Shown: in pieces, positions 3,261 to 30,879 of the stretch
Numbering within the stretch: the first letter of the stretch is position 1
How the letters are laid out: each line of letters opens with the position of its first letter
Virus record (IMG/VR): IMGVR_UViG_3300032677_000117
Location: 1 to 30,879 of that record
From: a virus
Direction: 5' to 3' (one strand)
DNA: 30,879 bases
Translations under genes and position numbers: made by a program
The notes under the pieces: generated by a model
The model's database searches: none
Told to the model about the DNA's origin: nothing
Seen by the model: the letters and a program-made list of their open reading frames with translations, nothing else

Positions 3261-3277
3261 AACCGTGAGGTGTGCCC

Positions 3278-7054: not shown

Positions 7055-7118
7055 AGTTTTGTCACAGTTTGAAGGTAATGACACAAGGTGAACCCAACGC
7101 TGGTCATGGAGGTATTCC

Positions 7119-7604: not shown

Positions 7605-7628
7605 GTCTGCTTCCACGAGAGGTAGACC

Positions 7629-8902: not shown

Positions 8903-8904
8903 CC

Positions 8905-10349: not shown

Positions 10350-10361
10350 GGGAGGTGCCTG

Positions 10362-10898
10362 ATGTCCTTTGACTGGAAGTCCATCGTCAAGACCGTCGCA
10401 CCGATGCTCGGCACGGCGCTCGGCGGGCCCTTCGGTGGCATCGCCGGAGCCGCCATCGCCAAGGCCCTGGGCACTCCCGACGCCAACCCCGACACCCTCA
10501 GCGCCGCCATCCAGAACGCCACGCCTGACCAGCTCGTCGCCATCAAGAAGATCGAGGATGACTTCGCCGCCCAGATGGCCCAGATGGGCTTCGCCGACAC
10601 CGAGGCCCTGGAGAAGATCGCCGCCGACGACCGCGACAGCGCCCGAAAGCGGGAGATCGCCGTCAAGGACAAGACCCCCGCCGCCGGGTTTTACATCATC
10701 ACCGTCGGGTTCTTTGTGCTCCTGGTGGCAATGATGTTCCTCCCCATCCCCGAAGCGAACAAGGCCGTCCTCTACGTGATGGTCGGCTCCCTGGGCACGG
10801 CCTGGGTTGGCTGTACGAACTACTACTACGGCAAGTCCAGCACTGATCCCGTCAAGGATCACATGCTCTACAACTCCACGCCCACGGAGGCCAAGTGA
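10362..10898 (+). CDS. Three-TM holin (GTA/prophage holin type)
   Basis: The 178-residue product has the layout of the three-transmembrane holins found in gene transfer agents and prophages. A small-residue-rich hydrophobic segment near residues 8-35 (KTVAPMLGTALGGPFGGIAGAAIAKAL) comes first. A charged helical middle (TPDQLVAIKKIEDDFAAQMAQMGF through RDSARKREIAVKD) follows. Two clear membrane helices lie at about 109-128 (FYIITVGFFVLLVAMMFL) and 135-155. Holins open the inner membrane and let the endolysin reach the wall. The ribosome-binding site is GGGAGGTGCCTG. It overlaps the next gene as GTGA. Confidence 0.82.
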   Translation: MSFDWKSIVKTVAPMLGTALGGPFGGIAGAAIAKALGTPDANPDTLSAAIQNATPDQLVAIKKIEDDFAAQMAQMGFADTEALEKIAADDRDSARKREIAVKDKTPAAGFYIITVGFFVLLVAMMFLPIPEANKAVLYVMVGSLGTAWVGCTNYYYGKSSTDPVKDHMLYNSTPTEAK

Positions 10899-11182
10899 CT
10901 CCTGGGGAATGGATCAGCGTCTGCTCGGTCTCTCTCGGGGCCTGTGGCTTGCTCTATTCGTCCCACCGGGACCTGAAGCACACGATCCAATCCCTGTTCA
11001 TCGAGCGGTTAGAGCGAATCGAGGAAGAGGACAAGCTGCGGGACGAGTGGATCCAGGACGTCCAGAACAAGGCCGATGATGTCACCGGGAAGATAAAGAT
11101 CGTTGAGTTCAGGCTCGACATGGTTGAGAAGAACTGCGGCGTCCGGCATGACCAGCACGGCTTCCCAGGCGGGGCGCTCTGA
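10895..11182 (+). CDS. Spanin-like small membrane/coiled-coil protein
   Basis: The 95-residue product starts with GTG at 10895, overlapping the holin stop. It has one N-terminal membrane helix (WISVCSVSLGACGLLYSS, about 6-23) and then a long charged coiled coil (LFIERLERIEEEDKLRDEWIQDVQNKADDVTGKIKIVEFRL). That is the inner-membrane spanin (Rz) layout, and position after the holin fits. No separate outer-membrane Rz1-like frame is seen inside or after it, so another type of small lysis accessory or holin-associated protein is possible. It couples to the portal gene by TGATG. Confidence 0.6.
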   Translation: MTPGEWISVCSVSLGACGLLYSSHRDLKHTIQSLFIERLERIEEEDKLRDEWIQDVQNKADDVTGKIKIVEFRLDMVEKNCGVRHDQHGFPGGAL

Positions 11183-13503: not shown

Positions 13504-13977
13504 ATGGCCCAAGCAGATGATGGCTTCCTTCGAGTCTGGCACCGTGGCATGGGCCCGGGCGCCGGCGTGCCCCAGCCCAAGGCTGTGGGCGCCCCTCTAA
13601 CCGCGATTGGCGTGTCTTCCTGGGCGAAGATCACGGACGCGCCCAACGCCTACTTCGCCCAGCTCACCGGCACGTCCGGGGCGGTGACTGCCACCTGTCA
13701 CTTCGAGTTCGGGGACGACATCCCGGGCCTGCCGATGGGCAACCAGAACGCCGTCGCTCCGGCTGGCATGGGGACGGCCATCAGCCTCACTGGCACGGGC
13801 GCCGGTGTAGCCGCCGCAGGTCCCCCGGCCTCCAGCGCCTTGGTTGGCCTCGGAATGTTCGGCGCGGACGCCTCAGTGAGCCCCTTGGTGCCCTGGAAGT
13901 ACGTCCGCCTGAACGTAACGGCCATCTCCGGCACCGGGGCCCAGGTGGCTGGCTTCCAGACGATGGGTGGCGCCTGA
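13504..13977 (+). CDS. Small structural-like protein (hypothetical)
   Basis: The 157-residue product is Gly/Ala/Thr/Val-rich with strand-like segments (ITDAPNAYFAQLTGTSGAVTATCHFEFGDDIPG; WKYVRLNVTAISGTGAQVAGFQTMGG). This pattern resembles phage proteins predicted to be beta-sandwich virion components. GCGAGGAGTAA is the ribosome-binding site, and the ATG follows the portal stop directly. It lies between the portal and protease genes, so a head role is likely. I do not recognise the family. Confidence 0.6.
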   Translation: MAQADDGFLRVWHRGMGPGAGVPQPKAVGAPLTAIGVSSWAKITDAPNAYFAQLTGTSGAVTATCHFEFGDDIPGLPMGNQNAVAPAGMGTAISLTGTGAGVAAAGPPASSALVGLGMFGADASVSPLVPWKYVRLNVTAISGTGAQVAGFQTMGGA

Positions 13978-14183
13978 TGCCGCTACCGGTCATCACCTCC
14001 GCCACCTCCTCCTGCGTCTACGAGATGTGCGAGCAGAGCGGACACGCCGTCTGCAAGACGTTCGCGGCCTACTACGCCCGGCTCTGCGGGGCGGCCCAGG
14101 CGGCGGTGACCAACCCCAGCGGCGACAACCTGGCGGCGCTCCAGGACGTCCTGAACGAGAACGAAGCGCTCCACTACGACTGA
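13977..14183 (+). CDS. Small cysteine-containing hypothetical protein
   Basis: The 68-residue product is coupled by TGATG to the gene before it. It is helical and carries four cysteines in the first 40 residues (SSCVYEMCEQSGHAVCK then ARLCGAA), with an Asn/Leu-rich C-terminal helix. The cysteines do not form a clear zinc site because their spacing is irregular. No function is recognised. It belongs to the head gene cluster by position. Confidence 0.55.
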   Translation: MPLPVITSATSSCVYEMCEQSGHAVCKTFAAYYARLCGAAQAAVTNPSGDNLAALQDVLNENEALHYD

Positions 14184-14190
14184 GGAAACC

Positions 14191-14424
14191 ATGCCACGAG
14201 GTATTCAAGTTCCAGTGACTATCGGCTTCGACCGCCACAAGGCCATCGGCATGCTGCGGGTGGATGCCGACTCCCTGCCCGCTGAGGGAAACTTCGTGTT
14301 CTCCGTGCGGGGGAGGGTCACGCCCCGGGGTGGGGTCAAGAAGTTCGAGCTGGAGGAGGTCTCCGTTCTGTCGGACTCGGACTTCCAAAAGGTCCTGGAT
14401 TCCAAGAAGAAAGGAGGCAAGTGA
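14191..14424 (+). CDS. Small hypothetical protein in the head cluster
   Basis: The 77-residue product looks like a compact beta-barrel: alternating strands QVPVTIGFDRHKAIGMLRVD, GNFVFSVRGRVTPRG and KKFELEEVSVLSD, then a lysine-rich tail (KKKGGK). GAGGAAACC precedes the ATG at 14191. Its stop overlaps the protease start as TGATG. No family is recognised. Confidence 0.58.
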   Translation: MPRGIQVPVTIGFDRHKAIGMLRVDADSLPAEGNFVFSVRGRVTPRGGVKKFELEEVSVLSDSDFQKVLDSKKKGGK

Positions 14425-15782
14425 TGCCAGACGCCGTCACCTACAAGGCGCTCAAGGAGGCGGGCAGCGCTGCGGCCTTGGCTAAGGCCCGCTTCAACAT
14501 GTTCGCCACCTTCACCAAGGCCGAGGAGCAGGACGACGGCTCGATCATCGTGTCCGGCCTCTGCTCCAGTGAGACCAAGGACAGCGACGGCGAGGTCATC
14601 CTGGCCAGCGCCATCAAGGCCGCCATCCCGGAATACATGCAGTGGGCGAACGTGCGCGAGATGCACAGCAATATCGCCGCCGGGAAGGCCCTGTCGATCC
14701 ACGTCAACGACGCCGGGGAGACCGAGTTCGAGGCCCGCATCATCAACTCCGAGACCGTCAAGAAGGTCAAGGAGGGGGTACTCCAGGGCTTCAGCATCGG
14801 CGGGCGCAAGGTCAAGTACGATCCCACCGACCGGCACATCATCACCGGGATCAGCCTCTCCGAGGTTTCCGTGGTGGACCGGCCCGCCAACCCGGACTGC
14901 CGGTTCCAGATCGCCAAGTTCGACGGCACCGAGGCCCAGAAGTCCATGTTCACCGTGGGCAGCCTGGCCCAGATGCTCCAGGAGATCGGCTGGATGTGCC
15001 AGTCCCTCCAGGCCGAGGCCGAGATGGAGGGCGACAACTCCACCATGCCCGCGAAGCTGCGCGAGTGGCTGTCCATGGGCGTCGAGGTGTTCGGCGAGCT
15101 CACCGAGGAGGAGACCCAGGAGCTCATGGTCTCCGCCGCGGGGCCAGAAGGAATGCCCCTGCGCGGGGCTGAAAGCAAGGCTGCCAAGGCCTTGAAAGCC
15201 CACCTGCTCAAGCGATGGGAATCCCACCCACACGGCCAACCGGCCGTCTTATTGGAGGCCGACATGGCCGATGAACTCAAGAAAGCGGCCAAGGACGACG
15301 TTTCCAAGGCCTGGAAGGACCTGGAGGATGCCCACAAGGCGCACAAGGATGCCTCCGACGCGGTGAAGTCCCTTAAGGACGACGCCAGCAAGGACGACTG
15401 CAGCAAGGCGATGAAGGACGTCGAAGCGGCCCACAAAGCCCACAAGGACGCCTGCGATGCCCACAAGAACGCCTGCGGCAAGGCCGTGAAGGCGATCCTG
15501 GGCAGCGTCAAGGACGACGCCAGCAAGGATGACAGCTCGAAGGCCGAGGAGATCGGCAACCTGCGGAAGTCCGTGGCCGACCAGGGCGCCGCCCTGGCTG
15601 AGCTCAAGGAACTGCTCACCAAGGCGCTGTCGGCCCCCGCCGCTTCCCCCCTGGAGCTCGCCCTGGCCAAGGCGCAGGGCAAGGAAAACCTGCTCCCCGG
15701 CTCCGAGCCCAGCACGGAGGAGCTCGACCCCAAGGACCCACTCTACGACATGAAGAAGGCCATGAGGACGCCTCTGCAGTAA
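14424..15782 (+). CDS. Prohead serine protease (XkdF/HK97-type) with C-terminal scaffold domain
   Basis: The 452-residue product starts at the ATG at 14424 after AAGGAGGCAAGTG; a GTG one codon earlier is possible. Residues to about 170 form the prohead protease: FATFTKAEEQDDGSIIVSGLCSSE, catalytic His in VREMHSN (H81), catalytic Ser in LQGFSIGG (S124), and the family's LSEVSVVDRPANPDC. A helical middle (about 175-275) leads to a Lys/Asp/Ala-rich C-terminus (from 281) with repeated KDDASKDD and AHKAHKDA units, a likely coiled-coil scaffold. The protease cleaves scaffold and capsid during head maturation. The scaffold appears to have its own internal start (separate entry). It is upstream of the capsid gene, as expected. 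Confidence 0.88.
   Translation: MPDAVTYKALKEAGSAAALAKARFNMFATFTKAEEQDDGSIIVSGLCSSETKDSDGEVILASAIKAAIPEYMQWANVREMHSNIAAGKALSIHVNDAGETEFEARIINSETVKKVKEGVLQGFSIGGRKVKYDPTDRHIITGISLSEVSVVDRPANPDCRFQIAKFDGTEAQKSMFTVGSLAQMLQEIGWMCQSLQAEAEMEGDNSTMPAKLREWLSMGVEVFGELTEEETQELMVSAAGPEGMPLRGAESKAAKALKAHLLKRWESHPHGQPAVLLEADMADELKKAAKDDVSKAWKDLEDAHKAHKDASDAVKSLKDDASKDDCSKAMKDVEAAHKAHKDACDAHKNACGKAVKAILGSVKDDASKDDSSKAEEIGNLRKSVADQGAALAELKELLTKALSAPAASPLELALAKAQGKENLLPGSEPSTEELDPKDPLYDMKKAMRTPLQ
15264..15782 (+). CDS. Probable nested scaffold protein (internal in-frame start)
   Basis: Inside the protease gene and in the same frame, ATG at 15264 is preceded by GGAGG at 15254-15258 with a five-base spacer, a better ribosome-binding site than most genes here have. 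The product would be 172 residues, exactly the Lys/Asp/Ala-rich helical part with the KDDASKDD and AHKAHKDA repeats and no protease residues. Scaffolds made from an internal start in the protease gene are known, as in lambda C/Nu3. That the SD lies precisely at the domain border is what I rely on. No biochemical evidence can be read here. Confidence 0.6.
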   Translation: MADELKKAAKDDVSKAWKDLEDAHKAHKDASDAVKSLKDDASKDDCSKAMKDVEAAHKAHKDACDAHKNACGKAVKAILGSVKDDASKDDSSKAEEIGNLRKSVADQGAALAELKELLTKALSAPAASPLELALAKAQGKENLLPGSEPSTEELDPKDPLYDMKKAMRTPLQ

Positions 15783-15816
15783 TAGCCCTTCCCACCCCTC
15801 CTTTCGGAGAAAGACA

Positions 15817-17316
15817 ATGGATCTCACCTACGAAACCCTGGACCTGCTTCGGTCCATCCGCAAGAACGACACGGGCGGCCGTGGCGACCTGCTCGCCAAG
15901 TCCGGCATCAGCCAGTCCACTGGCCTGGTCTTCTACGACCTGCAGGTCCCGTCCGAGAAGGCCATCCCCCTCATCACCCCCCTGCGGCTGAAGATCCCCC
16001 GCCGCCCGGGCCGTGGTGACACGTCCCACCGCTGGAAGGCGATCACCGCGCTGGATCTGACGACCACCGCGGAAGTGGGTGAAGGCCATCGCGGGGCGGC
16101 CATCAACACGACCGTCACCCCCTTGTCCGCCGCCTACGCCGGGATCGGCCTTGAGAACCCGGTGACCTGGGAAGCGCGGTACGCCTCCCAGAACTTCGAG
16201 GACGTGCGCGCCACTGCCATGCAGCTGGCCGTCTACGACCTCCAGCAGAAGGAAGAGTGGCAGCTCATCGGCGGGATGCAGACCCAGGGCCTCGGCCAGT
16301 GCGGGACTGTGACCCTCGCCAACAGCTCCACCGGCACCGTCGCCTCCGGGACCTACTACGTCCAGGTCGTGCCGATGACCCTGTTCGGCTACAAGAACAT
16401 CGGCGCCGCCGCCTCCGCCATCACCCCCCAGGTCGCCAGCCGGTCCAACACAGACGGCACGACCGACACCATCAACATGGGCTACGGCATCGCCTCGGCC
16501 TCCCAGACCGTGGTCATGTCCGACTCGGTGCACGCCATCACCGCCACCTGGGCCTCCGTCCCCGGCGCCGTGGCCTACGCCGTCTACGCGGGCCTCTCTG
16601 GCGCGATCAAGTTCCAGACCGTCGTGACCGCCCCCACCTGGACCACCACCACGACCCCGCTGACCACCGGCCAGAACATCACCGCCTGGACCAGCACGAA
16701 CGACTACAGCTTCAACAACCAGACCCAGCAGGGCTGCACCGTCAACAGCTACAGCGGCCTCCTGAACTACGCCGCCGCCTACGCCAGCAACGGGATGTAT
16801 TTCTACGACGCCGCGGGCACCAGCTTCACGTCCGACGGTGAGGGCGGGGTCACCCAGATCACCAACATGCTGGTCAGCATGTTCAACAACTACAAGCTCG
16901 GACCCACGGACCTCTGGGTGAACGCCACCCAGGGCATCCAGATCCGCAACCTCTGCTCCGCCAACGGCAGCCAGCCCCTGGTGCGCATGGTAGGCGACGG
17001 CTCTCTCGACAGCAAGAAGTTCGTCGCGGGCTACCAGATCCCCGACCTGCTCAACCCGTTCCCCACGGTGGAGCAGTCCATTGCCGTCCACGTCCACCCC
17101 GACATCCCCGCCGGCACGGTGCTCGCCACCTCCAGCCGCCTGCCCTACCAGGTCCAGCAGCTGCAGGACGGCCCCATCGTGGTCCGCGAGCGGCAGCCCT
17201 ACTACGGCATCGAATGGCCGCAGTACAAGCGCTTGCATGAGATGGGCATCTACTGCGACGCCAACCTCGAGCTGCACTTCGCTCCTGCGTTCGGCATCAT
17301 CCAGGGCCTCGTTTAG
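15817..17316 (+). CDS. Major capsid protein with an apparent Ig/FN3-like insertion
   Basis: The 499-residue product follows the protease/scaffold gene and precedes the connector gene, the standard place for the capsid gene. N- and C-terminal parts (1-160; about 300-499) have capsid-like composition, with segments such as LENPVTWEARYASQNFEDVRATAMQLAVYDLQQKEEW and a C-terminal YYGIEWPQYKRLHEMGIYCDANLEL. From about 163 to 290 lies a Thr/Val/Ala-rich stretch with ITATWASVPGAVAYAVYAG, the W...A..Y.VY pattern of fibronectin-III-like domains. This would be a surface-exposed insert. The ribosome-binding site is GGAGAAAGAC. The call rests on position, size and composition because capsid sequences diverge strongly. 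Confidence 0.85.
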   Translation: MDLTYETLDLLRSIRKNDTGGRGDLLAKSGISQSTGLVFYDLQVPSEKAIPLITPLRLKIPRRPGRGDTSHRWKAITALDLTTTAEVGEGHRGAAINTTVTPLSAAYAGIGLENPVTWEARYASQNFEDVRATAMQLAVYDLQQKEEWQLIGGMQTQGLGQCGTVTLANSSTGTVASGTYYVQVVPMTLFGYKNIGAAASAITPQVASRSNTDGTTDTINMGYGIASASQTVVMSDSVHAITATWASVPGAVAYAVYAGLSGAIKFQTVVTAPTWTTTTTPLTTGQNITAWTSTNDYSFNNQTQQGCTVNSYSGLLNYAAAYASNGMYFYDAAGTSFTSDGEGGVTQITNMLVSMFNNYKLGPTDLWVNATQGIQIRNLCSANGSQPLVRMVGDGSLDSKKFVAGYQIPDLLNPFPTVEQSIAVHVHPDIPAGTVLATSSRLPYQVQQLQDGPIVVRERQPYYGIEWPQYKRLHEMGIYCDANLELHFAPAFGIIQGLV

Positions 17317-17345
17317 ACCCTGGTCTGTGAAGAAGGGAGGACAGC

Positions 17346-17927
17346 ATGGCAGCGAACGATATGGCGGCTCTGGCGGACGTGAAAACGTACCTGAACGAGA
17401 CGACCAGCAACAGCGACGCCATGTTGTCCGCCCTGATCACGTCAGTTTCCACCATGATCCAGGACTTCACGGACAACCCGATCCTGTCGGCCACCTACGA
17501 CTGGTTCTTCTCGGGTTGGGGCAGCAAGACCGTGGTGGTGCCCTACGGCCCCGCCACCATCAACTCCGTGAACATCGACGGCATCAGCATCCCGCTGGTG
17601 ACGCCTGGATCGAACCCATACCCGCTCTACGGCTACACCTTCGACCCCCTGCGCCAGGAGATTCGCCTGGCCGGGTGCCACTTCACCAAGGGGGAGCAGA
17701 ACTGCGAAGTGAACTACACCGCAGGCTACGCCAACATCGCCGCGATCCCGATGGACCTGCAGTATGCCGTCTGGGCCCTGGTGGGTTGGATCTTTCGCAA
17801 CCGGAACCGGCAGGGCAAGTCCTCCGAGTCCGTCGGCGGGCGCATGACGGCGGCCTACTTGGCCACCTGGGCGCCTGCGGACGTGGTTCTGATCCTGGAG
17901 CACTACACCCGGAGGAATGTCGGATGA
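17346..17927 (+). CDS. Head-tail connector (gp6-like)
   Basis: The 193-residue product resembles the HK97 gp6/gp15-type adaptor that rings the portal and closes the head after packaging. The N-terminus has the typical LADVKTYLNETTSNSDAMLSALITSVSTMIQDFTDNPIL helices. A beta-rich middle (VVVPYGPATINSVNIDGISIPLV; CEVNYTAGYANIAAIPMDLQYAVWALVGWIF) and a C-terminal helix follow. The GYA.IP.D...A motif is characteristic. AAGGGAGG precedes the ATG. It overlaps the next gene as ATGA. Confidence 0.85.
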   Translation: MAANDMAALADVKTYLNETTSNSDAMLSALITSVSTMIQDFTDNPILSATYDWFFSGWGSKTVVVPYGPATINSVNIDGISIPLVTPGSNPYPLYGYTFDPLRQEIRLAGCHFTKGEQNCEVNYTAGYANIAAIPMDLQYAVWALVGWIFRNRNRQGKSSESVGGRMTAAYLATWAPADVVLILEHYTRRNVG

Positions 17928-18490
17928 TCGCTGCCGAACTGGTGGGTGCCGAGCGTGTTCTCTCCTTCATGGAGCGGCTGCCCGAGCAGTCCAAGGACAG
18001 CATGAAGCGGGCCATTCTCCGGCTGGCAGTCATGCTCCAGAACTACGTCAAGGACAGCGAACTCACTGGCCAGGCCCTGCACGTCCGCACCGGCCGGCTG
18101 CGGCGGTCTATCACCGCCAAGGCCACCGAGGAAGGCACCACCTACGCCGGGATCGTGGGGACCAACGTCGTCTACGCCCGGATCAATGAGTTCGGCGGGC
18201 AGACCAGGCCCCATGAGATCCGCCCGGTTCGGGCACGGGCTCTCCTGTTCGCCAGGGGTGGCTTCATCGGCCCCATGGAGAGCATGAGGACCCAGGGCGG
18301 GCGATACGCCAAGGGTAAGAAGGCGGCCATCTCTCGCGCCATCGGCGATGGCTCTATGCAGTTCGCCCGGGTCGTCCGTCACCCCGGCTCCAAGATCCCC
18401 GAGCGGTCCTTCCTCCGTTCCGCCCTGGCGGCCCTCACCCCTGAGATCCGAGCCGGGATCGAAGCGGCGCTGAAGGAGGCCATCCGATGA
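17924..18490 (+). CDS. HK97 gp10-like neck/tail-completion protein
   Basis: The 188-residue product matches the HK97 gp10 family. It has a helical N-terminus (ERVLSFMERLPEQSKDSMKRAILRLAVMLQNYVKD), then LHVRTGRLRRSI, YAGIVGTNVVYARINEFGG, and the C-terminal HPGSKIPERSFLRSAL motif. Proteins of this family link the connector to the tail. The start chosen is the ATG at 17924 in ATGA overlap with the connector gene; the frame stays open far upstream, but that part overlaps the capsid and connector genes and is not coding. The stop overlaps the next start. Confidence 0.88.
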   Translation: MIAAELVGAERVLSFMERLPEQSKDSMKRAILRLAVMLQNYVKDSELTGQALHVRTGRLRRSITAKATEEGTTYAGIVGTNVVYARINEFGGQTRPHEIRPVRARALLFARGGFIGPMESMRTQGGRYAKGKKAAISRAIGDGSMQFARVVRHPGSKIPERSFLRSALAALTPEIRAGIEAALKEAIR

Positions 18491-18966
18491 GCCTCACCTA
18501 CACCGCCGAAGGCATCGCCTCCGCCCTGTTCTCCCAGCTTCAGACCATCTCCGGCCTGAAGTATTCCAGCCGGGTCCTCAAGACCATCGGCGAATGCTCC
18601 TCTGAGGACATGCCCGCCCTGTTCCAGACCATGGGGGACCACACCCCCATCAACGACGCCAGCGGCCTGCCCACGGGGTGGAAGTACGAATACATCATCT
18701 ACTGCTACCTGCACAACAGCGACGCCCAGGCTGTCCCGCCCATCGCCCCCTCCACGGTGCTCAACACCTTCCTGGAGGCCATCAAGGCGGCCCTCCTGCC
18801 CACCGTGACCGCAGGCCCGCCGGGCTTCCCTGGCACGGTCCAGGTCCTGGGGGACACCTCCGGGCGGATCCGCCATGCCTGGATCTCCGGGCCGGTCTGG
18901 TCCGACGAGGGTCTGCTGGGCGACTCGCTGTTCCTGATCTTCCCCGTCGAAGTCGAAGTCCGCTAA
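18487..18966 (+). CDS. Tail terminator candidate
   Basis: The 159-residue product follows the gp10-like gene and precedes the tail tube, the usual place for the terminator that caps the tail (lambda gpU-like). It begins with a helix (AEGIASALFSQLQTISGLKYSSRVL) and continues with strands and YEYIIYCYLHN, VLNTFLEAIKAALLP and a final strand DSLFLIFPVEVEVR, a layout common in this family (alpha/beta, about 130-160 residues). Its sequence is not strongly conserved, so position is the main support. It starts in ATGA overlap. Confidence 0.72.
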   Translation: MSLTYTAEGIASALFSQLQTISGLKYSSRVLKTIGECSSEDMPALFQTMGDHTPINDASGLPTGWKYEYIIYCYLHNSDAQAVPPIAPSTVLNTFLEAIKAALLPTVTAGPPGFPGTVQVLGDTSGRIRHAWISGPVWSDEGLLGDSLFLIFPVEVEVR

Positions 18967-18976
18967 AGGAGGCCCT

Positions 18977-19240
18977 ATGGCCGAAGAAACCGAACCTGCA
19001 ACCCCGGCCCCGGAGCCCACCCTGGTGGAACGTCTCGAGGCTGACGTCGAAGAGGTGAAGGCGGCCGTCGAGGCCGTGCCTGCCGAGGCTGACGCCAAGG
19101 TCGCCCAGATCCACGCCCACTTCGACGCCTTCAGGGAGGAGGTGCGGGCCAACGTCTCCGCGCTGATCCCCACCGTCGCCCACAACACGCTCATGTCCTT
19201 CGTGGAGTCCCTCCGCGCCAAGGTCCTGAGTCTTCTGTAG
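18977..19240 (+). CDS. Small Glu/Ala-rich helical protein (hypothetical)
   Basis: The 87-residue product starts at the ATG at 18977 behind AAAGGAGGCCCT, a strong site. The first 15 residues are Pro/Glu/Thr-rich and the rest is one or two amphipathic helices (LVERLEADVEEVKAAVEAVPAEADAKVAQIHAHFDAFREEVRANVSAL) ending in LRAKVLSLL. It sits between the terminator and the tube protein, where tail genes are normally adjacent. The family is unknown; a helical assembly factor or regulator is possible. Confidence 0.6.
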   Translation: MAEETEPATPAPEPTLVERLEADVEEVKAAVEAVPAEADAKVAQIHAHFDAFREEVRANVSALIPTVAHNTLMSFVESLRAKVLSLL

Positions 19241-19249
19241 GAGCCCATC

Positions 19250-19990
19250 ATGGGCCAGATTGTCAATTTCGGCGTGGGGTTCCTCACCGCCATCGTGGGC
19301 TCCCAGCCTATCCCCATCGGCGTCCTCAAGGACGTCAGCATCGACCTGTCCTACACCATGAAGTCCCTGACGGGGCAGAGCCAGTTCCCGCTCGACATCG
19401 CCCGGGGAGAGGGCAAGCTGACCGGCAAGGCCACCTTCGCCACCGTCAACAGCCTGCTCCTGGCCCAGCTCACCAGCGGCGCCACCACGGCGGCCGGCAA
19501 CGTTCAGGGTATCTATCTGGAAGGCCCCGCCACCCCGAGCAGCAACACCATCACCGCCGTCCACGGCGCCACCTTCAAGACCGACCTCGGCGTCTGGGAC
19601 AGCACCGCCCAGAAGTGGCTGACCTGGGTCGCTTCCGGCCCCGTGACGGGGCAGTATTCGGTGGTCACCTCCACCGGCGTCTACACCTTCGCGGCGGCGG
19701 ACGCCACCCACCTGATGGCCCTCTGCTACTCGTGGACCGTCGCGTCCACCGGCGTCACCGTCAGCCTGGCCAACCAGCTGATGGGCACGAACACCTACTT
19801 CCAGCTCGCCCTGTTCGAGAACTACAGCACCAGCCCCATCGGCGGCCAGATGGGCATCATGCTGCCCAACGTGGTGCTCTCCAAGATGAGCCTGGGCTTC
19901 AAGAACTCGGACTTCACCAGCGACGCCGTGGACTTCGAGGCCTGCCAGAACCTGGCCGGCCAGATTTACTACGCCTACACCAGCGTCTAG
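19250..19990 (+). CDS. Major tail (tube) protein
   Basis: The 246-residue product lies between the terminator and the tail chaperone genes, where siphoviruses place the tube protein. The start GQIVNFGVGFLTAIVG, the segment IGVLKDVSIDLSYTMKSLTGQSQFPLDIARGEGKLTGKATFATV, and the C-terminal SKMSLGFKNSDFTSDAVDFEACQN are typical of tube proteins, with a beta-rich body. The middle (about 85-190) is longer than a minimal tube fold, perhaps an Ig-like or surface loop. AGGAGCCCATC is the ribosome-binding site. It forms the hexameric rings of the tail. Confidence 0.85.
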   Translation: MGQIVNFGVGFLTAIVGSQPIPIGVLKDVSIDLSYTMKSLTGQSQFPLDIARGEGKLTGKATFATVNSLLLAQLTSGATTAAGNVQGIYLEGPATPSSNTITAVHGATFKTDLGVWDSTAQKWLTWVASGPVTGQYSVVTSTGVYTFAAADATHLMALCYSWTVASTGVTVSLANQLMGTNTYFQLALFENYSTSPIGGQMGIMLPNVVLSKMSLGFKNSDFTSDAVDFEACQNLAGQIYYAYTSV

Positions 19991-19998
19991 GAGCCTTC

Positions 19999-20286
19999 AT
20001 GGCCACCTTCAAGATCAACGTCAACGGCTCCGAGGTCGTCCTGCCGCCCCTCACCTACGGGGCGGTCAAGGCGAACAAGGAGATCATCGACCGCTTCGAG
20101 ACCAAGGACCTCGGTTACGACGACCGGATCGCGGCAGCCGCCGCCTTCCTCTCGCTGTCGGCCCCCGGCACCGACTTCGACGCGGCGGTTCCCCTCGACA
20201 TCCTGAACGCCTCCCGGGATGTCCATGCCGCGACGTTCTTCAGCCCGGAAGGGTTCGCCCCAGTTCAGCAAGTTCCGAACCCCTGA
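19999..20286 (+). CDS. Tail assembly chaperone, short form (gpG-like)
   Basis: The 95-residue product (ATG at 19999 after TAGGAGCCTTC) sits right after the tube gene and before the tape measure, exactly where gpG-like chaperones lie. Its sequence (FKINVNGSEVVLPPLTYGAVKANKEIIDRF; DDRIAAAAAFLSLSAPGTDFDAAVPLDILNASRDVHAATFF) is typical of these short helical chaperones. It ends in CCC TGA at 20281-20286. The -1 frame is open across this point and continues for 72 residues to the tape-measure gene, so a small fraction is probably made as a longer gpGT. Confidence 0.82.
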   Translation: MATFKINVNGSEVVLPPLTYGAVKANKEIIDRFETKDLGYDDRIAAAAAFLSLSAPGTDFDAAVPLDILNASRDVHAATFFSPEGFAPVQQVPNP

Positions 20287-20293
20287 ACTGGGG
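20258..20293 (+). promoter_or_regulatory. Perfect 11-bp hairpin spanning the gpG stop; frameshift element candidate
   Basis: CCCCAGTTCAG at 20258-20268 pairs perfectly with CTGAACTGGGG at 20283-20293 across a 14-base loop. The stop codon of the short chaperone lies at 20284-20286 inside the second arm, and a C CCC TGA run at 20280-20286 lets a proline tRNA re-pair in the -1 frame. There is no T run, so it is not a simple terminator. A role in frameshifting is inferred from placement. Confidence 0.6.
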
Positions 20294-20501
20294 CCGACTC
20301 TCCGGTCTCATCGTCACGACCACGGGGTGGACCATGCGCGAGCTGGACGCCACGCCCTGGCCTGAAGTGGCGGACCTGCTCGCCTACTGGTCCCAGAACC
20401 CGCCGCTCCACCTGATGGTCAAGGCCTACCTCGGGTTCAAGCCCAAGCGGGATGACGAAATGATCACGCCCACCCAGATGATGCAGCAGCTCCAGGGATA
20501 G
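20283..20501 (+). CDS. gpT-like extension of the tail chaperone (-1 frame)
   Basis: The frame that is -1 to the short chaperone runs from about 20283 to the TAG at 20499-20501. It encodes LNWGRLSGLIVTTTGWTMRELDATPWPEVADLLAYWSQNPPLHLMVKAYLGFKPK and a short tail. The RELDATPW / PPLHLMVKAYLGFK pattern and the 72-residue size fit the T part of lambda-type G-GT chaperones, which is expressed only by ribosomes that slip back one base. An ATG at 20334 behind GGGGTGG could allow separate translation. The slippery site is not canonical: C CCC TGA is my best candidate. The long form would be about 165 residues. Confidence 0.72.
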   Translation: MNWGRLSGLIVTTTGWTMRELDATPWPEVADLLAYWSQNPPLHLMVKAYLGFKPKRDDEMITPTQMMQQLQG

Positions 20502-20503
20502 TG

Positions 20504-22507
20504 ATGAGCGACCAAGAGGTCCAAGTCAAGATCAGCGCCGACGTCCAGAGTCTCCTCCAGGGGATGAAGGACGCCCAGGAACATGTCGCCAATGCCACGG
20601 AGGGCATGAAGGGCGACCTGGGGGCGCTGGTCGAGTCCTTCGAGAAGCTGGGCCCTGCTGCGCTGGCGATGGGGGCGGTCGGCATCGCCATGGAAGGCCT
20701 CAAGGAAGGGGCCGCCTCTGTCATGGAGGCGGTGAAGTCCACGGACGAGCTGGCCCGGTCGTTCGAGACGTTGCACATGCGCACGGGTGCCTCCTACGAG
20801 GACCTCACCGTCTACAAGAACGCCATGGTGCTCTCTGGCGGGTCCATGGAGGACTTCAGCGCCCTCCTGACTGGCCTATCCCGGAAGATGGCCCAGAACA
20901 GCGACATCTACATCGCCAACGGCATCGCCGCGGATAAGGCCGCGCTCCAGCATCAGGATCTGATGACCACCCTGGCCAAGTCGGTCCAGGTGATCGCGGC
21001 CGTCGAGGACCCGGGCCGGCGGGCGGAACTGGCCATCTCCCTTCTGGGCGGCCGGGCCCAGGCCATGCTGCCCCAGATCATGCGCATGAACGAGGTGATC
21101 GAGAAGGATGGCGTGGAGGGCCTCAAGAAGCTCGGCGCCACCATTGACGATGCGGCCGTGAACAAGATGAAGGCCCTGGAACACGCCACTGGAGAATTGA
21201 AACTACAGATCGAGGCCGTGGATCAGAAGATGGCCGAGTCAGGGCGGGGGTTCGCCACCTGGGGGCTCCAGGCTTCGCTTGCATGGAAACAGCTCGTGGA
21301 CGCCGCAACCTCGTCCAATTCCATTCTGAGGATGATCCCTGGCGTCACAGAACTCCTTGCTGCCGGCGGCCAGGGCAGCCATGCCCCGGCTCTGACCACG
21401 AAGGAGGGCGGGGCCCCGGCTTTCAGCGCGGGCGGATCCGCCCCCAAGGTCGGCCAGACCCAGCAGGAACTCGATGCCGCCAAGGCCGCCGCCGCCCAGC
21501 GGATCCAACTGGCCCAGATGTCCGCCCAGGAGGAACTGAAGGCCAAGATCGATTCCATCAACGCCCAGGTGGCTGCGGACAAGCACCTGGTGGACATGGA
21601 TGCACTGGACTATGACGAGATGATCTCCAACGCCAAGGCCGCGGCACTGGAGACCTGGGAGGCCCAGCAGGAGACCGGGAACAAGGAGATCGCCCTGGCG
21701 CAGGGCAACGCCGTGCAGATCGCCACCATCCGGGCGCGGATGGCCGACGAGGAGCGGGCCTACCAGAAGACCGTCCAGGGACTGGACGACCAAGCCGAGA
21801 AGCACTGGCTGGAAGGTATCCAGGCGGAAGAAAAAGAAGATCGGAGACAAGAGCAGAGCCGGATAGCGATCAACATCGAGATCCAAAAGGACATCGAGAA
21901 GAACCAGAAGAAGCGGCTCGAAGGCGAGATGAGGATCCTAGACCAGATGACCAGCGGCTGGGACGGGGCCATCCAGAAGATGCTCCACGGCCAGATGAGC
22001 CTGAAGGATGGGGTGATCGGGGCTGCACGACAGATGGAGAACCAGGTCGAGAAGTCCATCATCAACATGGGCCTGCAGTGGGGAAAGTACTTCATCCTGC
22101 AGCAGATCGAGGGCGACAAGGCCCACATGACCCAGGTCATGACCAACGCCAAGAGCGCCGCGGCTGCCGCCTGGAACGCCACGGTCGGTATCCCCTTCAT
22201 CGGGCCGGTGCTGGCCCCGGTTGCCGCCGCGGCTTCCTTCGCGGGTGTCATGGCCTTTGCCGAGGGCGGATGGGACCGGGTGCCCTCTGACCAAGTGGCG
22301 ATGATCCACAAGAACGAGATGGTGCTCCCGGCGAACATCGCCAACCCGCTGCGTGAAAGCCTGGCTGGTGGCGGGAATCTTGGCGGCGGCAACCACATCC
22401 ATATCCACGCCATGGACAGCCAGTCCTTCACCCAGGCGCTGAAGAACAACACCGGCGGCCTGATGGAAGTCCTAGGCGGCGTCATGCGCAACGGACGACG
22501 ATCATGA
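20504..22507 (+). CDS. Tail tape measure protein
   Basis: The 667-residue product starts at the ATG at 20504, just after the chaperone stop; a GTG one codon earlier is possible. It is highly helical. The first 130 residues include AATEGMKGDL-like coils and LAMGAVGIAMEGLKEGAASVMEAV. Then come long Ala/Gln/Lys coiled coils (AKAAAAQRIQLAQMSAQEELKAKIDSINAQVAADK; RARMADEERAYQKTVQGLDDQAEK). Near 555-590 lies a hydrophobic stretch (GIPFIGPVLAPVAAAASFAGVMAF) then a Gly-rich C-terminus. Tape measures set tail length and go through the tube into the host. At 667 residues it predicts a tail of about 100 nm if the usual 1.5 angstrom per residue rule applies. Confidence 0.9.
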   Translation: MSDQEVQVKISADVQSLLQGMKDAQEHVANATEGMKGDLGALVESFEKLGPAALAMGAVGIAMEGLKEGAASVMEAVKSTDELARSFETLHMRTGASYEDLTVYKNAMVLSGGSMEDFSALLTGLSRKMAQNSDIYIANGIAADKAALQHQDLMTTLAKSVQVIAAVEDPGRRAELAISLLGGRAQAMLPQIMRMNEVIEKDGVEGLKKLGATIDDAAVNKMKALEHATGELKLQIEAVDQKMAESGRGFATWGLQASLAWKQLVDAATSSNSILRMIPGVTELLAAGGQGSHAPALTTKEGGAPAFSAGGSAPKVGQTQQELDAAKAAAAQRIQLAQMSAQEELKAKIDSINAQVAADKHLVDMDALDYDEMISNAKAAALETWEAQQETGNKEIALAQGNAVQIATIRARMADEERAYQKTVQGLDDQAEKHWLEGIQAEEKEDRRQEQSRIAINIEIQKDIEKNQKKRLEGEMRILDQMTSGWDGAIQKMLHGQMSLKDGVIGAARQMENQVEKSIINMGLQWGKYFILQQIEGDKAHMTQVMTNAKSAAAAAWNATVGIPFIGPVLAPVAAAASFAGVMAFAEGGWDRVPSDQVAMIHKNEMVLPANIANPLRESLAGGGNLGGGNHIHIHAMDSQSFTQALKNNTGGLMEVLGGVMRNGRRS

Positions 22508-23106
22508 CCGCCATCTTCCCCGCCCTCCCAGGCATCGGCATCGCGGTGAAGCGCACGCCGGTCTTCTCGACGCTGGTCCAGACGAGCATCAGCGGGAAGG
22601 AGACCCGGGCGGCCTTCCAGTCCATCCCGCGCTGGAAATACTCGATCCCTCTCAATTTCGCCCGAATGACCGGCTTCAGCCCGAACACGGCCACGAACGA
22701 GATGGCGACCATCCTCTCGTCCTTCATGACGGCGATGGGGCAGCTCAACTACTTCGACTTCACGGACCCGTACAGCAACATGCAACTCGGCATCACCCCC
22801 ATTGCCGCGGGCACTGGCCTCGCGGGGCAGACCACACAGCTCCTGGACATCGAGGGGTACCCCATCTATGACCTGAACGGGACGCCCAGCCTCTACGTGA
22901 ACGGCACGCTTAAGACTGTGACGACCGACTACACCGTCAGCAACGGCCTGGTCACCTGGGTCACCAACCCGGGGAATGGGCTGGCCATCACCTGGGCCGG
23001 AGGCTACTACCGGCGTTGCCGCTTCGACATGGACGAGTTCGAGCTCGAGCAGATCGTCAACCTGTGCTGGGGCAACGGCACCATCAAGCTAATCAGCCTC
23101 AAATGA
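22504..23106 (+). CDS. Distal tail protein, DUF2460 family (RcGTA gp12-like)
   Basis: The 200-residue product has the DUF2460 pattern: FPALPGIGIAVKRTPVFSTLVQTSISGKETRA near the start, IPLNFARM, FMTAMGQLNYFDFTDPYSN in the middle, and CRFDMDEFELEQIVNLCWG at the end. In gene transfer agents and siphophages this protein forms the hexameric ring at the tail end, between tube and tip. It is coupled to the tape measure by ATGA and to the next gene in the same way. It opens a four-gene tip block in the same order as RcGTA gp12 to gp15. Confidence 0.9.
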   Translation: MTAIFPALPGIGIAVKRTPVFSTLVQTSISGKETRAAFQSIPRWKYSIPLNFARMTGFSPNTATNEMATILSSFMTAMGQLNYFDFTDPYSNMQLGITPIAAGTGLAGQTTQLLDIEGYPIYDLNGTPSLYVNGTLKTVTTDYTVSNGLVTWVTNPGNGLAITWAGGYYRRCRFDMDEFELEQIVNLCWGNGTIKLISLK

Positions 23107-24002
23107 GAGCCGCGTCTGGATCTCTCATCTCCGCACTGGCCAACAACGCCGTGTTCCTCGTGGCGAATTGCTACACGATCACGCTTTCGGCGGCCATGGG
23201 TGGCACGGTCTACCGCTGGACCAGCTGCGACCAGAGCCTCACGGTGGGCGGCCGGACCTTCACCTGCCAGGACGACCAGTCCACATCCCAGCCCGGCATC
23301 AAGCGCGGCCCGATCCGGCATGCCCGGGGCAAGGAGGTCCAGACCTGCGAGATCACCCTGACCTCTGGGCAGACCGTCCAGATGGGAGGGGTGAGTTTGC
23401 CCTTGTTCGCTCACAACGGAGGGTTCGACGGTGCGCAGGTCCTAGTGGAGTGGGTGCCGATGGGCCCGGGCGGCTGGGGTGATACGAGTCTCGGGTCCGT
23501 GGTCCTGTTCCAGGGCAATGTGGCCAATGTGAACCCAACCACCACCACGGTGGTCCTGGAGGTCAAGGACTTCAAGGAGCTCCTGATCAACCAGATGCCC
23601 CGCACGGTGTTCCAGAGCAGCTGTAGCAACGCCTTCGGAGACGCGAACTGCGGCAAGTCCCTGGCGGGCCTCACGGTCAGCAGCTCGATCACCAGCGGGC
23701 CCTCCACGACGGGCTTCACTGCGAGCGGGCTGGGGCAGGCCACAGGCTATTTCAACCTCGGCACATTGACCATGACCTCCGGCGCAGCTTCCGGGGCCAC
23801 GCGGGCCATCTCCACCTTCACCAGCGGCGGCGCCATCGTCCTAGTGACGCCGCTGCCCGCCGCACCCTCAAACGGGGACACCTTCACCATCACGCCCGGC
23901 TGCGATAAGCAGTGGACCACCTGCAACACGAAATACAGCAACTCGACCCGGTATCGCGGCTGTCCTTGGGTGCCCCCTCCTGAGACCACGGTGACGGGAT
24001 GA
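23103..24002 (+). CDS. Tail hub protein, DUF2163 family (RcGTA gp13-like)
   Basis: The 299-residue product has the DUF2163/BR0599-type pattern. The N-terminus begins MRAASGSLISALANN and ends its first domain near residue 165 (VLEVKDFKELLINQMPRTVFQSSCSN). The C-terminus has the conserved TITPGCDKQWTTCNTKYSN followed by YRGCPWVPPP. Cysteines at 174, 183, 267, 274 and 287 are suitably placed for a metal or iron-sulphur site. Related hub proteins (for instance lambda gpL) are known to hold an iron-sulphur cluster. The start is the ATG at 23103 in ATGA overlap; the frame is open further upstream, but that part overlaps the DUF2460 gene. Confidence 0.9.
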   Translation: MRAASGSLISALANNAVFLVANCYTITLSAAMGGTVYRWTSCDQSLTVGGRTFTCQDDQSTSQPGIKRGPIRHARGKEVQTCEITLTSGQTVQMGGVSLPLFAHNGGFDGAQVLVEWVPMGPGGWGDTSLGSVVLFQGNVANVNPTTTTVVLEVKDFKELLINQMPRTVFQSSCSNAFGDANCGKSLAGLTVSSSITSGPSTTGFTASGLGQATGYFNLGTLTMTSGAASGATRAISTFTSGGAIVLVTPLPAAPSNGDTFTITPGCDKQWTTCNTKYSNSTRYRGCPWVPPPETTVTG

Positions 24003-29624: not shown

Positions 29625-29810
29625 ATGGACCAGATCATCGCTTCCGACCTCACCCTGTTCGCTGACGCCCAAGCTGCGCTCCAGGCAGCGCAGACCACCG
29701 TTCAGTTCGTCAGCAACCACCTGACTAAGACCTATTCCCTAACCCCCCAGGACCAGGTGGACCTGAAAACCGGCGTCATCACCCGCCCCGCTCCCGAGCC
29801 GGCAGCGTGA
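29625..29810 (+). CDS. Small hypothetical protein
   Basis: The 61-residue product starts at ATG 29625 behind TAGGAGCGCACC. The first 40 residues are helical and Ala/Gln-rich (DLTLFADAQAALQAAQTTVQFVSNHL); the end is proline-rich. It resembles short phage proteins of unknown role that lie near the tail-end genes. Its stop overlaps the next gene as GTGA. Confidence 0.55.
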   Translation: MDQIIASDLTLFADAQAALQAAQTTVQFVSNHLTKTYSLTPQDQVDLKTGVITRPAPEPAA

Positions 29811-30235
29811 ACACCGGGGACCTGGTACTGTTCCGGGGGCACGGGCCGTTTGACTGGTTCATCAGGCTATGGACCAGATCCGCGTGGGCGCACTGCGGAC
29901 TCGTATGGGTCTGCGAAGGCATCCCCCTGGTCATCGAGGCCCAGTATTCGGGCGGCGTCAGCGTTCACGCCCTCGCCAACCGGATGGCGGACGATCCGTT
30001 CATCACGCCATCCGGGAGGGCCATGAACCTCCCGCTGGCCCTCCAGCACTTCGGGGACTGGTACAGCCTAAAAAATGCAGTGGACGCCGGGCTAGGCTAT
30101 CCACTGCATCACGCGGGGTGGGAGTGCGCGCAGTTCGCGGCGTTCCTGCTGGGAATGGATATGGCTGAGGACTGGACGCCTCAGTCGCTACTGGATGAAC
30201 TGACGCCCTCGGGGGGTCATGCCGGGGGCAATTAG
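29807..30235 (+). CDS. Permuted NlpC/P60-like peptidase (YiiX-type)
   Basis: The 142-residue product starts with GTG at 29807 in GTGA overlap. Its order is that of the circularly permuted papain-like NlpC/P60 (YaeF/YiiX) family: first GDLVLFRGHGPFDWFIRLWTRSAWAHCGLVW with the catalytic His at H29, then the Cys in GWECAQFAAFLLG (C107). E44 in VIEAQYSGG may be the third residue. These enzymes act on peptide, or in some cases lipid, bonds. It is the last gene of the late strand. It may be a lysis helper or a peptidoglycan editor. No signal peptide is seen. Confidence 0.72.
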   Translation: MNTGDLVLFRGHGPFDWFIRLWTRSAWAHCGLVWVCEGIPLVIEAQYSGGVSVHALANRMADDPFITPSGRAMNLPLALQHFGDWYSLKNAVDAGLGYPLHHAGWECAQFAAFLLGMDMAEDWTPQSLLDELTPSGGHAGGN

Positions 30236-30592
30236 GATGGCCTGGGGCAGCTTCCTGACGGTGCGACCATCGTTGTCCGTGGTGGTGGCCGTGAAAGCGA
30301 TCTCCCAGCCGTAGTCCGAGCCGGTGGGGGGCACAAGCGAGGCTTCGCCCTTCCCGGTGATCCGGTTATCGTTCCAGTCGCGCACCCAGGCGCGGGGGCC
30401 GACCAGATGAACATTCTGGACGATGAGTTTCCCCGGCTGCTGGAGTGTGACGGTGGAAGCCCACTTGGAAACGGCCTGGTCCATCTGGATCTGTGTCGGG
30501 GCGGGGCCGATGTCCACACCAGCGGGGATGACGGTGGTGGGGCCGCAGGCCATGAGCGCGGCGGAAGCGAGGATGAGCGCGTAAACCTTCAT
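30188..30592 (-). CDS. Small lipoprotein, likely prophage moron
   Basis: The 134-residue product is on the opposite strand to all other phage genes. It has a signal peptide (MKVYALILASAAL) ending in the lipobox LMAC with cysteine at residue 16; the following Gly does not act as an inner-membrane retention signal, so an outer-membrane location is likely. The mature part is beta-rich (VQNVHLVGPRAWVRDWNDNRITGKGEASLVPP; GWEIAFTATTTDNDGRTVRKLP). The ribosome-binding site AGAGGGGG lies just upstream. Its 3' end overlaps the peptidase gene by 48 bases (convergent). A lone antisense lipoprotein at the prophage edge is the usual place for lysogenic conversion or superinfection-exclusion genes; that role is inferred. 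Confidence 0.75.
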   Translation of the reverse strand: MKVYALILASAALMACGPTTVIPAGVDIGPAPTQIQMDQAVSKWASTVTLQQPGKLIVQNVHLVGPRAWVRDWNDNRITGKGEASLVPPTGSDYGWEIAFTATTTDNDGRTVRKLPQAILIAPGMTPRGRQFIQ

Positions 30593-30638
30593 TGTTCCCC
30601 CTCTAGGGAATGGCGGGGCACACGGTCCCCGACCGTTG

Positions 30639-30734
30639 GAAAACGGGTTGTGTAGCAGTTGTGCAAATGCCCCTGAAAACGGGCGGCAAATAAGCGGAAA
30701 ATATCAGACAAGAAGCAAGAGAAGGCAAAACGGG
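30639..30734. repeat. Three AAAACGGG repeats near the tRNA
   Basis: AAAACGGG occurs at 30640-30647, 30676-30683 and 30727-30734 in a 177-base stretch with no gene. The first two copies share a longer GAAAACGGG. Short repeats spaced by tens of bases near an attachment site can be integrase arm sites or regulator sites. Nothing else is seen in this stretch apart from the lipoprotein leader and the terminator. Confidence 0.45.
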
Positions 30735-30766
30735 AAGGCCCGTAAACCTTGCGGCTACGGGCCTTC
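30734..30766 (-). terminator. Terminator hairpin beside tRNA-Lys
   Basis: GAAGGCCCGTA at 30734-30744 and TACGGGCCTTC at 30756-30766 form a perfect 11-bp stem with an 11-base loop. Read on the - strand, the tRNA transcript runs into it and then meets CCCGTTTT. Read on the + strand it is followed by CTTTT, so it may work in both directions and insulate the tRNA from the prophage. Confidence 0.8.
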
Positions 30767-30769
30767 TTT

Positions 30770-30846
30770 TGGTGGTCCCTCCCGGACTCGAACCGGGGAC
30801 CCTCTGATTAAGAGTCAGATGCTCTAACCAGCTGAGCTAAGGGACC
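30770..30846 (-). tRNA. tRNA-Lys (anticodon CTT)
   Basis: The complement of 30770-30846 folds as a full cloverleaf of 77 bases. The acceptor arms GGTCCCT and AGGGACC pair perfectly, the D arm is GCTC/GAGC, the anticodon stem is TCTGA/TCAGA, and the loop CTCTTAA carries CTT at 30812-30810. The T arm is CCCGG/CCGGG with TTCGAGT, and CCA is encoded at the end. It carries lysine to AAG codons. Its 3' end faces the prophage, which suggests the phage integrated into its 3' half and rebuilt it. Confidence 0.96.
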
Positions 30847-30879
30847 ACGAGAAGAAGAGTCTATCAGGGAAGCCCCGGA

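What the first reader, a model, noticed from the sequence alone, without database searches (positions are those of the whole stretch)
30188..30592. Lone antisense lipoprotein at the prophage edge
It is the only protein gene on the - strand, has its own ribosome-binding site, overlaps the last late gene tail-to-tail, and has a lipobox. Outer-membrane lipoproteins in this position often change the lysogen's surface and block superinfection. The mature part is unlike any family I recognise.
Basis: partly seen in the sequence, partly recalled or inferred. Interest (0 to 1): 0.5.

Follow-up and report, generated by a model that had tools for sequence, protein, structure and literature searches.

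The report
Second envelope lipoprotein of a prophage
A small gene at one end of a bacterial virus's known sequence encodes a probable membrane-anchored protein, a strongly changed copy of another one encoded beside the same virus's dormancy switch, so it may alter or guard the host cell while the virus lies dormant.

Summary
The gene is real. Window 30188-30592 (-) encodes 134 aa with a lipoprotein signal peptide, phage-like codon usage and its own SD-like site. A second contig of the same phage (100% identical over window 1-13015, 99.8% to 23427) extends 6951 bp further left. It carries a paralogue, P0002 (37% identical), 51 nt behind a CI-like repressor and before a terminator-like hairpin. 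P0002 matches a widespread phage and plasmid protein family of unknown function (PHROG 2320). Members occur as annotated 'possible moron', as lone antisense genes, beside an integrase, and behind HTH proteins on the same strand (12 of 50 records; 1.04 expected at random). The window's protein kept the N-terminal part but lost 8 of the family's 12 most conserved residues, so libraries show no family for it. Best reading: a lysogenic-conversion envelope lipoprotein, a diverged paralogue of one encoded with the repressor. Superinfection exclusion is the likeliest single job, unproven; the defence library PADLOC shows no match. 'Outer membrane' is not established (host unknown). 'Only - strand gene' holds for the window, not for the phage, whose left arm has a - strand module. 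The 'prophage edge' is probable (tRNA-Lys; integrase near the other known end), but no att repeat was found.

The parts
30188..30592 (-). Lipoprotein gene (P0001, 134 aa), diverged paralogue of repressor-linked lipoprotein P0002
   Evidence: ORF; codon usage; 37% identity to P0002, E 3e-26; 0 of 2000 shuffles reach its score against the family profile
30545..30592 (-). Type II signal peptide up to and including Cys16 (lipobox LMAC)
   Evidence: Read from the translation; Cys16 lies at the invariant Cys column of the family alignments
30597..30603 (-). Shine-Dalgarno-like GAGGGGG, 4 nt before the ATG
   Evidence: Read from the sequence
30604..30725 (-). Presumed promoter region of the lipoprotein gene; 120-bp windows here have GC 0.50-0.56 against 0.64 for the window
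   Evidence: Composition. Against: no sigma-70 consensus at 9 of 12. No repressor operator nearby. Inference
30726..30771 (.). Hairpin between tRNA-Lys and the lipoprotein gene, possible bidirectional terminator
   Evidence: - strand -25.7 kcal/mol, z -4.85, 0 of 200 shuffles as good; + strand z -2.0, 10 of 200 as good. The consensus scan found one other terminator-like site at 30743-30730 (-), no more than the 0.8 expected by chance
30770..30846 (-). tRNA-Lys (CTT), possible attachment-site side
   Evidence: ARAGORN; Rfam RF00005, 72.7 bits, 30773-30846
29807..30235 (+). Last late gene (142 aa; PHROG 1128 E 3e-13, weakly C92/YiiX-like), overlaps the lipoprotein gene tail-to-tail by 48 bp

Best explanation
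A temperate phage carries two related exported lipoproteins in two places typical of accessory genes. P0002, in the left arm, lies in one transcription unit with the CI-like repressor and is therefore probably made in the lysogen. P0001, the window's gene, is a stand-alone antisense gene at the far end of the late genes, separated by a hairpin from the tRNA beside it and without the repressor operator found in the left arm. Both would be exported, cut before Cys16, lipidated and held at a membrane surface by an N-terminal tether, carrying a small domain of one helix on a beta sheet. Most likely P0001 is a lysogenic-conversion protein acting at the envelope, and its likeliest job is to hinder entry of other phages, with a specificity different from that of P0002 because its conserved C-terminal pattern was replaced. 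Shown: the gene, its lipobox, the paralogy, P0002's place behind the repressor, the family's contexts, the loss of the signature. Inferred: expression, location, lipidation, exclusion activity.
For: Paralogy; family profile 16.4 bits against at most 10.3 for 2000 shuffles of the mature part (12.5 against 10.7 with P0002 left out of the profile); BLAST to L055 and L054 at E about 1e-6 in a set of 46. Same phage. P0002 51 nt behind the repressor ORF and before a terminator-like site at L037 5166-5186; operator-like repeats overlap the two predicted promoters. Family contexts: ES18 gp20 annotated 'possible moron'; SEN5_30 between ogr and integrase, opposite to both; Gordonia phage Dorito gp16, lone antisense; L054, opposite to its flanking ORFs as I read them; related phage L055 with HTH gene then lipoprotein. 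HTH_3 protein on the same strand within 1.5 kb upstream in 12 of 50 records, 9 of these 12 over Pfam's cut-off, against 1.04 at random. Integrase in 27 of 50. Models of P0001 and P0002 share one helix on a beta sheet. Precedent: the lipoprotein Ltp of TP-J34 lies in the lysogeny module two genes behind CI, is transcribed in the prophage and prevents DNA injection (PMC3952083, passages); bstA is transcribed from the cI promoter and an antisense ST64B gene from its own promoter (PMC7067206, passages).
Against: No expression data. No consensus promoter before P0001. No PADLOC match for P0001, P0002 or three relatives. No function for any family member was met in the searches made. P0001 lost 8 of the 12 most conserved family residues, which could mean decay. 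Several phage relatives used for context are weak matches to P0002 (ES18 E 0.09, Dorito E 0.9) and rest on the shared motif. Some relatives lie on the same strand as their neighbours, in structural or early gene runs. P0001 and P0002 lie on two metagenome contigs, so their presence in one genome is inferred. Only 1 of 26 records of related phages holds a homologue of P0001, though many are short fragments.
Confidence: 0.45

Rival explanations
1. Lysogenic-conversion lipoprotein that helps the host in some other way (envelope stability, grazing or stress resistance, as lambda Bor does for serum resistance) and has nothing to do with other phages.
For: Same anatomy. P0002 also finds plasmid proteins, for example on a 4.5-kb plasmid whose seven listed genes are not phage structural genes. 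No PADLOC match.
Against: The repressor-linked place of P0002 is used by an exclusion gene in another phage (Ltp), though also by genes of other kinds.
Confidence: 0.3
2. A duplicate on its way out: P0001 is a decaying paralogue with little function.
For: Loss of D52, S55, N90, A91, K92, N93, Y98 and G100 (P0002 numbering) of the family signature; uneven divergence, 58% identity in residues 17-54, 22% in 55-72, 34% in the last 38 aligned residues.
Against: Intact 134-codon frame, strong codon bias, kept signal peptide and Cys. AlphaFold2 model with mean pLDDT 79.7, though the alignment given to it was the intact family.
Confidence: 0.13
3. A late gene acting during lytic growth, such as a receptor-blocking lipoprotein of the T5 Llp kind that protects progeny phage.
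For: It lies at the end of the late genes and has no repressor operator nearby.
Against: It is on the strand opposite to the late genes and separated from the tRNA side by a hairpin.
Confidence: 0.08
4. A host gene just outside the prophage.
For: It is next to a tRNA-Lys and no att repeat has been found, so the exact phage end is unknown.
Against: Its nearest relative found is in the same phage, with a 60-nt stretch at 78% DNA identity; it overlaps a phage gene by 48 bp; the tRNA 3' end faces it, so a phage integrated at that end would contain it.
Confidence: 0.04

Closest known systems
PHROG 2320 / 35631 proteins and their relatives (e.g. SEN5_30, P106B_46, KPP56652_14, ES18 gp20)
   Same: Lipobox, size, N-terminal part, accessory-type positions in several phages
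   Different: P0001 lacks the LKDPxSA and NAKNxYGGYxG signature and is not hit by the PHROG profile; P0002 is. That the named phage proteins are themselves PHROG 2320 members was not tested; they align with P0002
Ltp superinfection-exclusion lipoprotein of Streptococcus phage TP-J34
   Same: Lipid-anchored; gene in the lysogeny module behind CI, a place like that of P0002 (PMC3952083, passages)
   Different: Gram-positive host; one gene lies between CI and ltp; no sequence comparison was made; P0001 lies in another place
lambda Bor, N15/phi80 Cor, T5 Llp (recalled)
   Same: Small phage proteins acting at the envelope
   Different: P0001 matched no Pfam, PHROGs or NCBIfam model at E up to 1; sequences were not compared directly

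Membership tests
PHROG 2320-type phage lipoprotein family | Lipobox with Cys at the family's invariant column | tested here: met
   Cys16 invariant in alignments of 10 and 55 sequences
PHROG 2320-type phage lipoprotein family | Signature LKDPxSA ... NAKNxYGGYxG | tested here: not met
   P0001 keeps 4 of the 12 most conserved residues (C16, L50, P53, G96 in P0002 numbering)
PHROG 2320-type phage lipoprotein family | Match to the PHROG profile | tested here: not met
   0 families at E up to 1 for P0001; no match in the window at E up to 10; P0002 E 3.5e-15
PHROG 2320-type phage lipoprotein family | Homology to a member | tested here: met
   37% to P0002, E 3e-26; own family profile above all 2000 shuffles
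Superinfection-exclusion lipoprotein (works like) | Lipid-anchored exported protein | tested here: inconclusive
   Lipobox by sequence only
Superinfection-exclusion lipoprotein (works like) | Expressed in the lysogen | not testable with these tools
   Inferred for P0002 from its place behind the repressor; open for P0001
Superinfection-exclusion lipoprotein (works like) | Blocks phage adsorption or DNA entry | not testable with these tools
   Needs plating and adsorption tests; PADLOC library negative
Phage moron (accessory gene) | Own transcription unit, strand opposite to neighbours, dispensable | tested here: inconclusive
   Opposite strand and a hairpin on the tRNA side shown; promoter not found; dispensability not testable
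NTF2/cystatin-like fold | Structural match well above background | tested here: inconclusive
   VIA-align best Z 5.7, rmsd 3.7 over 84 (P0001) and 5.4, rmsd 3.5 over 78 (P0002); Foldseek no match at E up to 0.001

The most novel reading that the evidence does not exclude
The phage runs a two-lipoprotein envelope system. The repressor-linked copy marks or shields the lysogen, and the fast-diverging copy at the other arm is a specificity-switched or antagonistic partner: it excludes different phages, or releases the block for the phage's own progeny. Duplication and re-targeting of this widespread lipoprotein family would then be a route to new exclusion specificities.
Probability: 0.1. Interest if true: 0.6.

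Novelty: new variant of a known kind. Interest (0 to 1): 0.36.

Why it matters
The family behind it is widespread (184 relatives of P0002 among the first 600 pattern matches in one virus collection, a capped list; phage and plasmid records), yet nothing I searched gives it a function. Its repeated position behind repressor-like genes and as a lone antisense gene suggests that it acts in lysogens. A phage with two diverged copies offers a compact, testable case for what the conserved NAKN-YGGY part does, and for whether changing it changes which phages are kept out.

Tried and rejected
Chance ORF: rejected on codon usage and homology, not on length. Structured RNA: at Rfam's gathering scores only the tRNA is found in 29800-30879. 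Library identification of P0001: Pfam, PHROGs, NCBIfam, PADLOC, PDB sequences (best E 0.24), phages, plasmids, and pattern scans of viral and genome contigs all negative. The profile scan led by P0001 returned only P0002's contig. Host or att site: a tRNA 45-mer gave 0 matches in viral contigs; no shared 11-mer between window 30591-30879 and the 700 bases at G026's left end, and no tRNA in L037, though G026 may stop short of the att site; genome scans with P0001 and with the phage gene 15817-17316 gave nothing, so the host is unknown. Fold matches: no Foldseek match at E up to 0.001 for P0001 in PDB or viral models, nor for P0002 in PDB; VIA-align Z of 5.7 and 5.4 at best, to NTF2-like, cystatin-like and VirB8-like domains among others, lies within the stated background. 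Family-profile hits in PDB sequences to eL29 (E 5e-4), a putative hemolysin (E 0.02) and spackle (E 0.27) were judged by me to be unrelated or too weak. Repressor operator upstream of P0001: none; one 3-mismatch site at 26137 is at chance level. A second copy in other phages: 3 of 50 records gave a second match, one a 29-position piece, one at E 0.003, one (G074, E 1.5e-10) plausible. Papers: seven searches; no listing pointed to work on this family, but only listings and abstract beginnings were seen, plus passages of three papers (PMC3952083, PMC7067206, PMC10883804).

Full report
What is there. The ORF at 30188-30592 (-) is as described: 134 aa, ATG, SD-like GAGGGGG four bases upstream, signal peptide MKVYALILASAALMA followed by Cys16, and a 48-bp tail-to-tail overlap with the + strand ORF 29807-30235. 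Length is no argument in this 64% GC window, where 29 ORFs of this length or more, this one included, are listed on the - strand. Coding is supported by codon-position GC (0.61, 0.50, 0.84) and by a codon-usage score of +0.49 bits per codon, the only positive one among six frames of 30236-30592.

Surroundings. A tRNA-Lys (CTT) lies at 30770-30846 on the same strand, upstream of the gene. Between them a hairpin of -25.7 kcal/mol forms on the - strand (z -4.85, 0 of 200 shuffles as good) and, less outstandingly, on the + strand (z -2.0, 10 of 200 as good). It may stop transcription from either side; the consensus scan did not list it and found one other terminator-like site (30743-30730, -), no more than chance. 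The 120-bp windows covering 30580-30819 have 50-56% GC, which suits a promoter, but no sigma-70 consensus at 9 of 12 was found in 29800-30879. Promoter position is therefore inference.

The same phage continues on another contig. Scanning virus contigs with the tail gene 23016-24002 gave 26 records. One of the 26, G026, holds a homologue of the lipoprotein. G026 is the same phage: it matches window 1-3028 and 3016-13015 at 100% and 13016-23427 at 99.8%, and runs 6951 bp beyond the window's left end. In that stretch (locus L037, whose + strand is the phage's - strand) lie: a weakly matched HTH gene pointing towards the lytic genes (3939-4160, -; best E 4e-5); a CI-like HTH repressor in the opposite direction (ORF 3966-4727, a plausible ATG at 4245; HTH_3 E 4e-8); the lipoprotein P0002 (4779-5144, +), 51 nt behind it, with a small overlapping ORF (4558-4782) without matches; a terminator-like site (5166-5186); then Sak4-like, YqaJ-like exonuclease and tyrosine integrase genes. 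An inverted repeat read by eye at 4173-4189 (AATAGCG-N3-CGCTATT) recurs at 5226-5242 with 2 mismatches; a third site, 9332-9348 with 3 mismatches, lies inside the integrase ORF. Shuffles of the locus gave 0.10 sites on average and never three (0 of 200), but the pattern was taken from the first site. The first two overlap the only two promoter-like sites found there (2 against 0.7 in shuffles), one towards the lytic genes and one towards the recombination-integrase genes. The repressor-P0002 unit thus resembles lambda cI-rexAB (recalled), and P0002 should be made in the lysogen. No such operator lies near P0001. That P0001 and P0002 are in one genome rests on identity between two metagenome contigs; it is very likely but not seen on one molecule.

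Relationship. P0001 and P0002 are 37% identical over 123 alignment columns (E 3e-26), with one 60-nt stretch at 78% DNA identity. P0002 matches PHROG 2320 (E 3.5e-15) and 35631 (E 1.6e-7), both of unknown function, and weakly finds mostly hypothetical proteins in 34 phage and 27 plasmid records at E up to 1 (20 rows of each were seen). A scan with an alignment of these gave 184 relatives among the first 600 pattern matches; 80 were kept. In 60 of 62 proteins read from them a lipobox was recognised; the choice of start codon favoured a lipobox, so this is an upper figure. The most conserved residues are C16, L50, D52, P53, S55, N90, A91, K92, N93, G96, Y98, G100 of P0002 (leaving out M1). P0001 keeps four of the twelve (C16, L50, P53, G96): NAKN has become TTTD and YGGYTG has become DGRTVR, without a frameshift that I could see. 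Identity is 38% in the signal peptide, 58% over residues 17-54, 22% over 55-72 and 34% over the last 38 aligned residues. Even so P0001 scores 16.4 bits on the family profile, 12.5 if P0002 is left out, against best shuffles of 10.3 and 10.7 in 2000; the match without P0002 covers residues 1-66. PADLOC has no match for P0001, P0002 or three relatives.

What the family's places say. ES18 gp20 is annotated 'possible moron' between putative terminators. SEN5_30 sits between ogr and integrase on the strand opposite to both. Dorito gp16 is a lone antisense gene between tail genes; it carries a variant of the motif. L054 lies opposite to its flanking ORFs as I read them, one of them an AntA-type antirepressor. 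In KPP5665-2 it lies among tail genes on the same strand, in P106B behind DNA-replication genes on the same strand, in Medea1 on the tail-gene strand next to regulator-like genes, in R656 between two opposite genes near a putative endolysin. So it is not tied to one module. Some of these matches to P0002 are weak (ES18 E 0.09, R656 E 0.07, Dorito E 0.9). In 50 records (of the 80 loci, near-duplicates dropped by me) an HTH_3 protein lies on the same strand within 1.5 kb upstream in 12, of which 9 are over Pfam's cut-off, against a mean of 1.04 and a maximum of 6 in 5000 random placements; 10 remain without G026 and G028. The records are not independent of each other. Integrase was found in 27 of 50, many records being fragments.

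Structure. AlphaFold2 gives P0001 a signal helix, one helix (34-47) and four strands (55-63, 68-71, 92-105, 111-121), mean pLDDT 79.7, pTM 0.67, with weak stretches at 71-90 and at the C-terminus. P0002 comes out alike: helices 7-14 and 34-49, strands 57-70, 79-90, 102-108, mean pLDDT 84.7, pTM 0.73. No confident relative was found by fold. Both models find helix-on-sheet domains of NTF2-like, cystatin-like and VirB8-like type among their best rows, at Z up to 5.7 and 5.4, within the stated background.

How it probably works. Exported, cut before Cys16, lipidated, and held at a membrane surface with a small globular domain: inferred from sequence and models. Being antisense to the late genes and without the repressor operator, it is probably made in the lysogen: inferred. 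The closest worked example in position and chemistry that I saw is Ltp of TP-J34: a lipoprotein in the lysogeny module, two genes behind CI, transcribed in the prophage, which prevents DNA injection, though with rather weak activity on the host species' own phages (PMC3952083, passages). Salmonella prophages show both kinds of place in use: bstA transcribed from the cI promoter, and an antisense gene of ST64B with its own promoter (PMC7067206, passages). Superinfection exclusion is therefore my likeliest single function (about 0.45), followed by some other lysogenic-conversion function (about 0.3).

Verdict. By the signature and profile tests it should not be filed as a PHROG 2320 member; it is a paralogue that has left the family's core pattern.

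Noticed in passing
L037 4173-4189 and 5226-5242: Two operator-like inverted repeats over the predicted lytic-side and recombination-side promoters: a lambda-like switch in this phage.
   Followed up: partly
window 7629-8321: Endolysin-like gene (PHROG 315) between the terminase and portal genes, which struck me as an unusual place.
   Followed up: no
window 29807-30235: Last late gene matches PHROG 1128 (E 3e-13) and weakly C92/YiiX permuted papain-like proteins, below their cut-offs.
   Followed up: no
window 3018-3045 and 3171-3198: GA-rich inverted repeat, 28 nt, 86% complementary, 125 nt apart, at the end of the primase/helicase gene.
   Followed up: no
window 15305-15544: Repeats rich in Lys, Asp and Ala codons inside a head-protease-like gene.
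   Followed up: no
window from about 26500: Nucleotide similarity to related phages largely ends after the tail gene, at the tail-fibre genes.
   Followed up: no
L015 7090-8214: In a related phage an integrase gene follows the tail-fibre region on the same contig, as expected if the right end of such phages adjoins the integrase end.
   Followed up: partly
L133 2815-3243: Mycobacterium prophage prophiGD25-1 gp68, beside a polymorphic-toxin immunity gene, carries the family signature.
   Followed up: no
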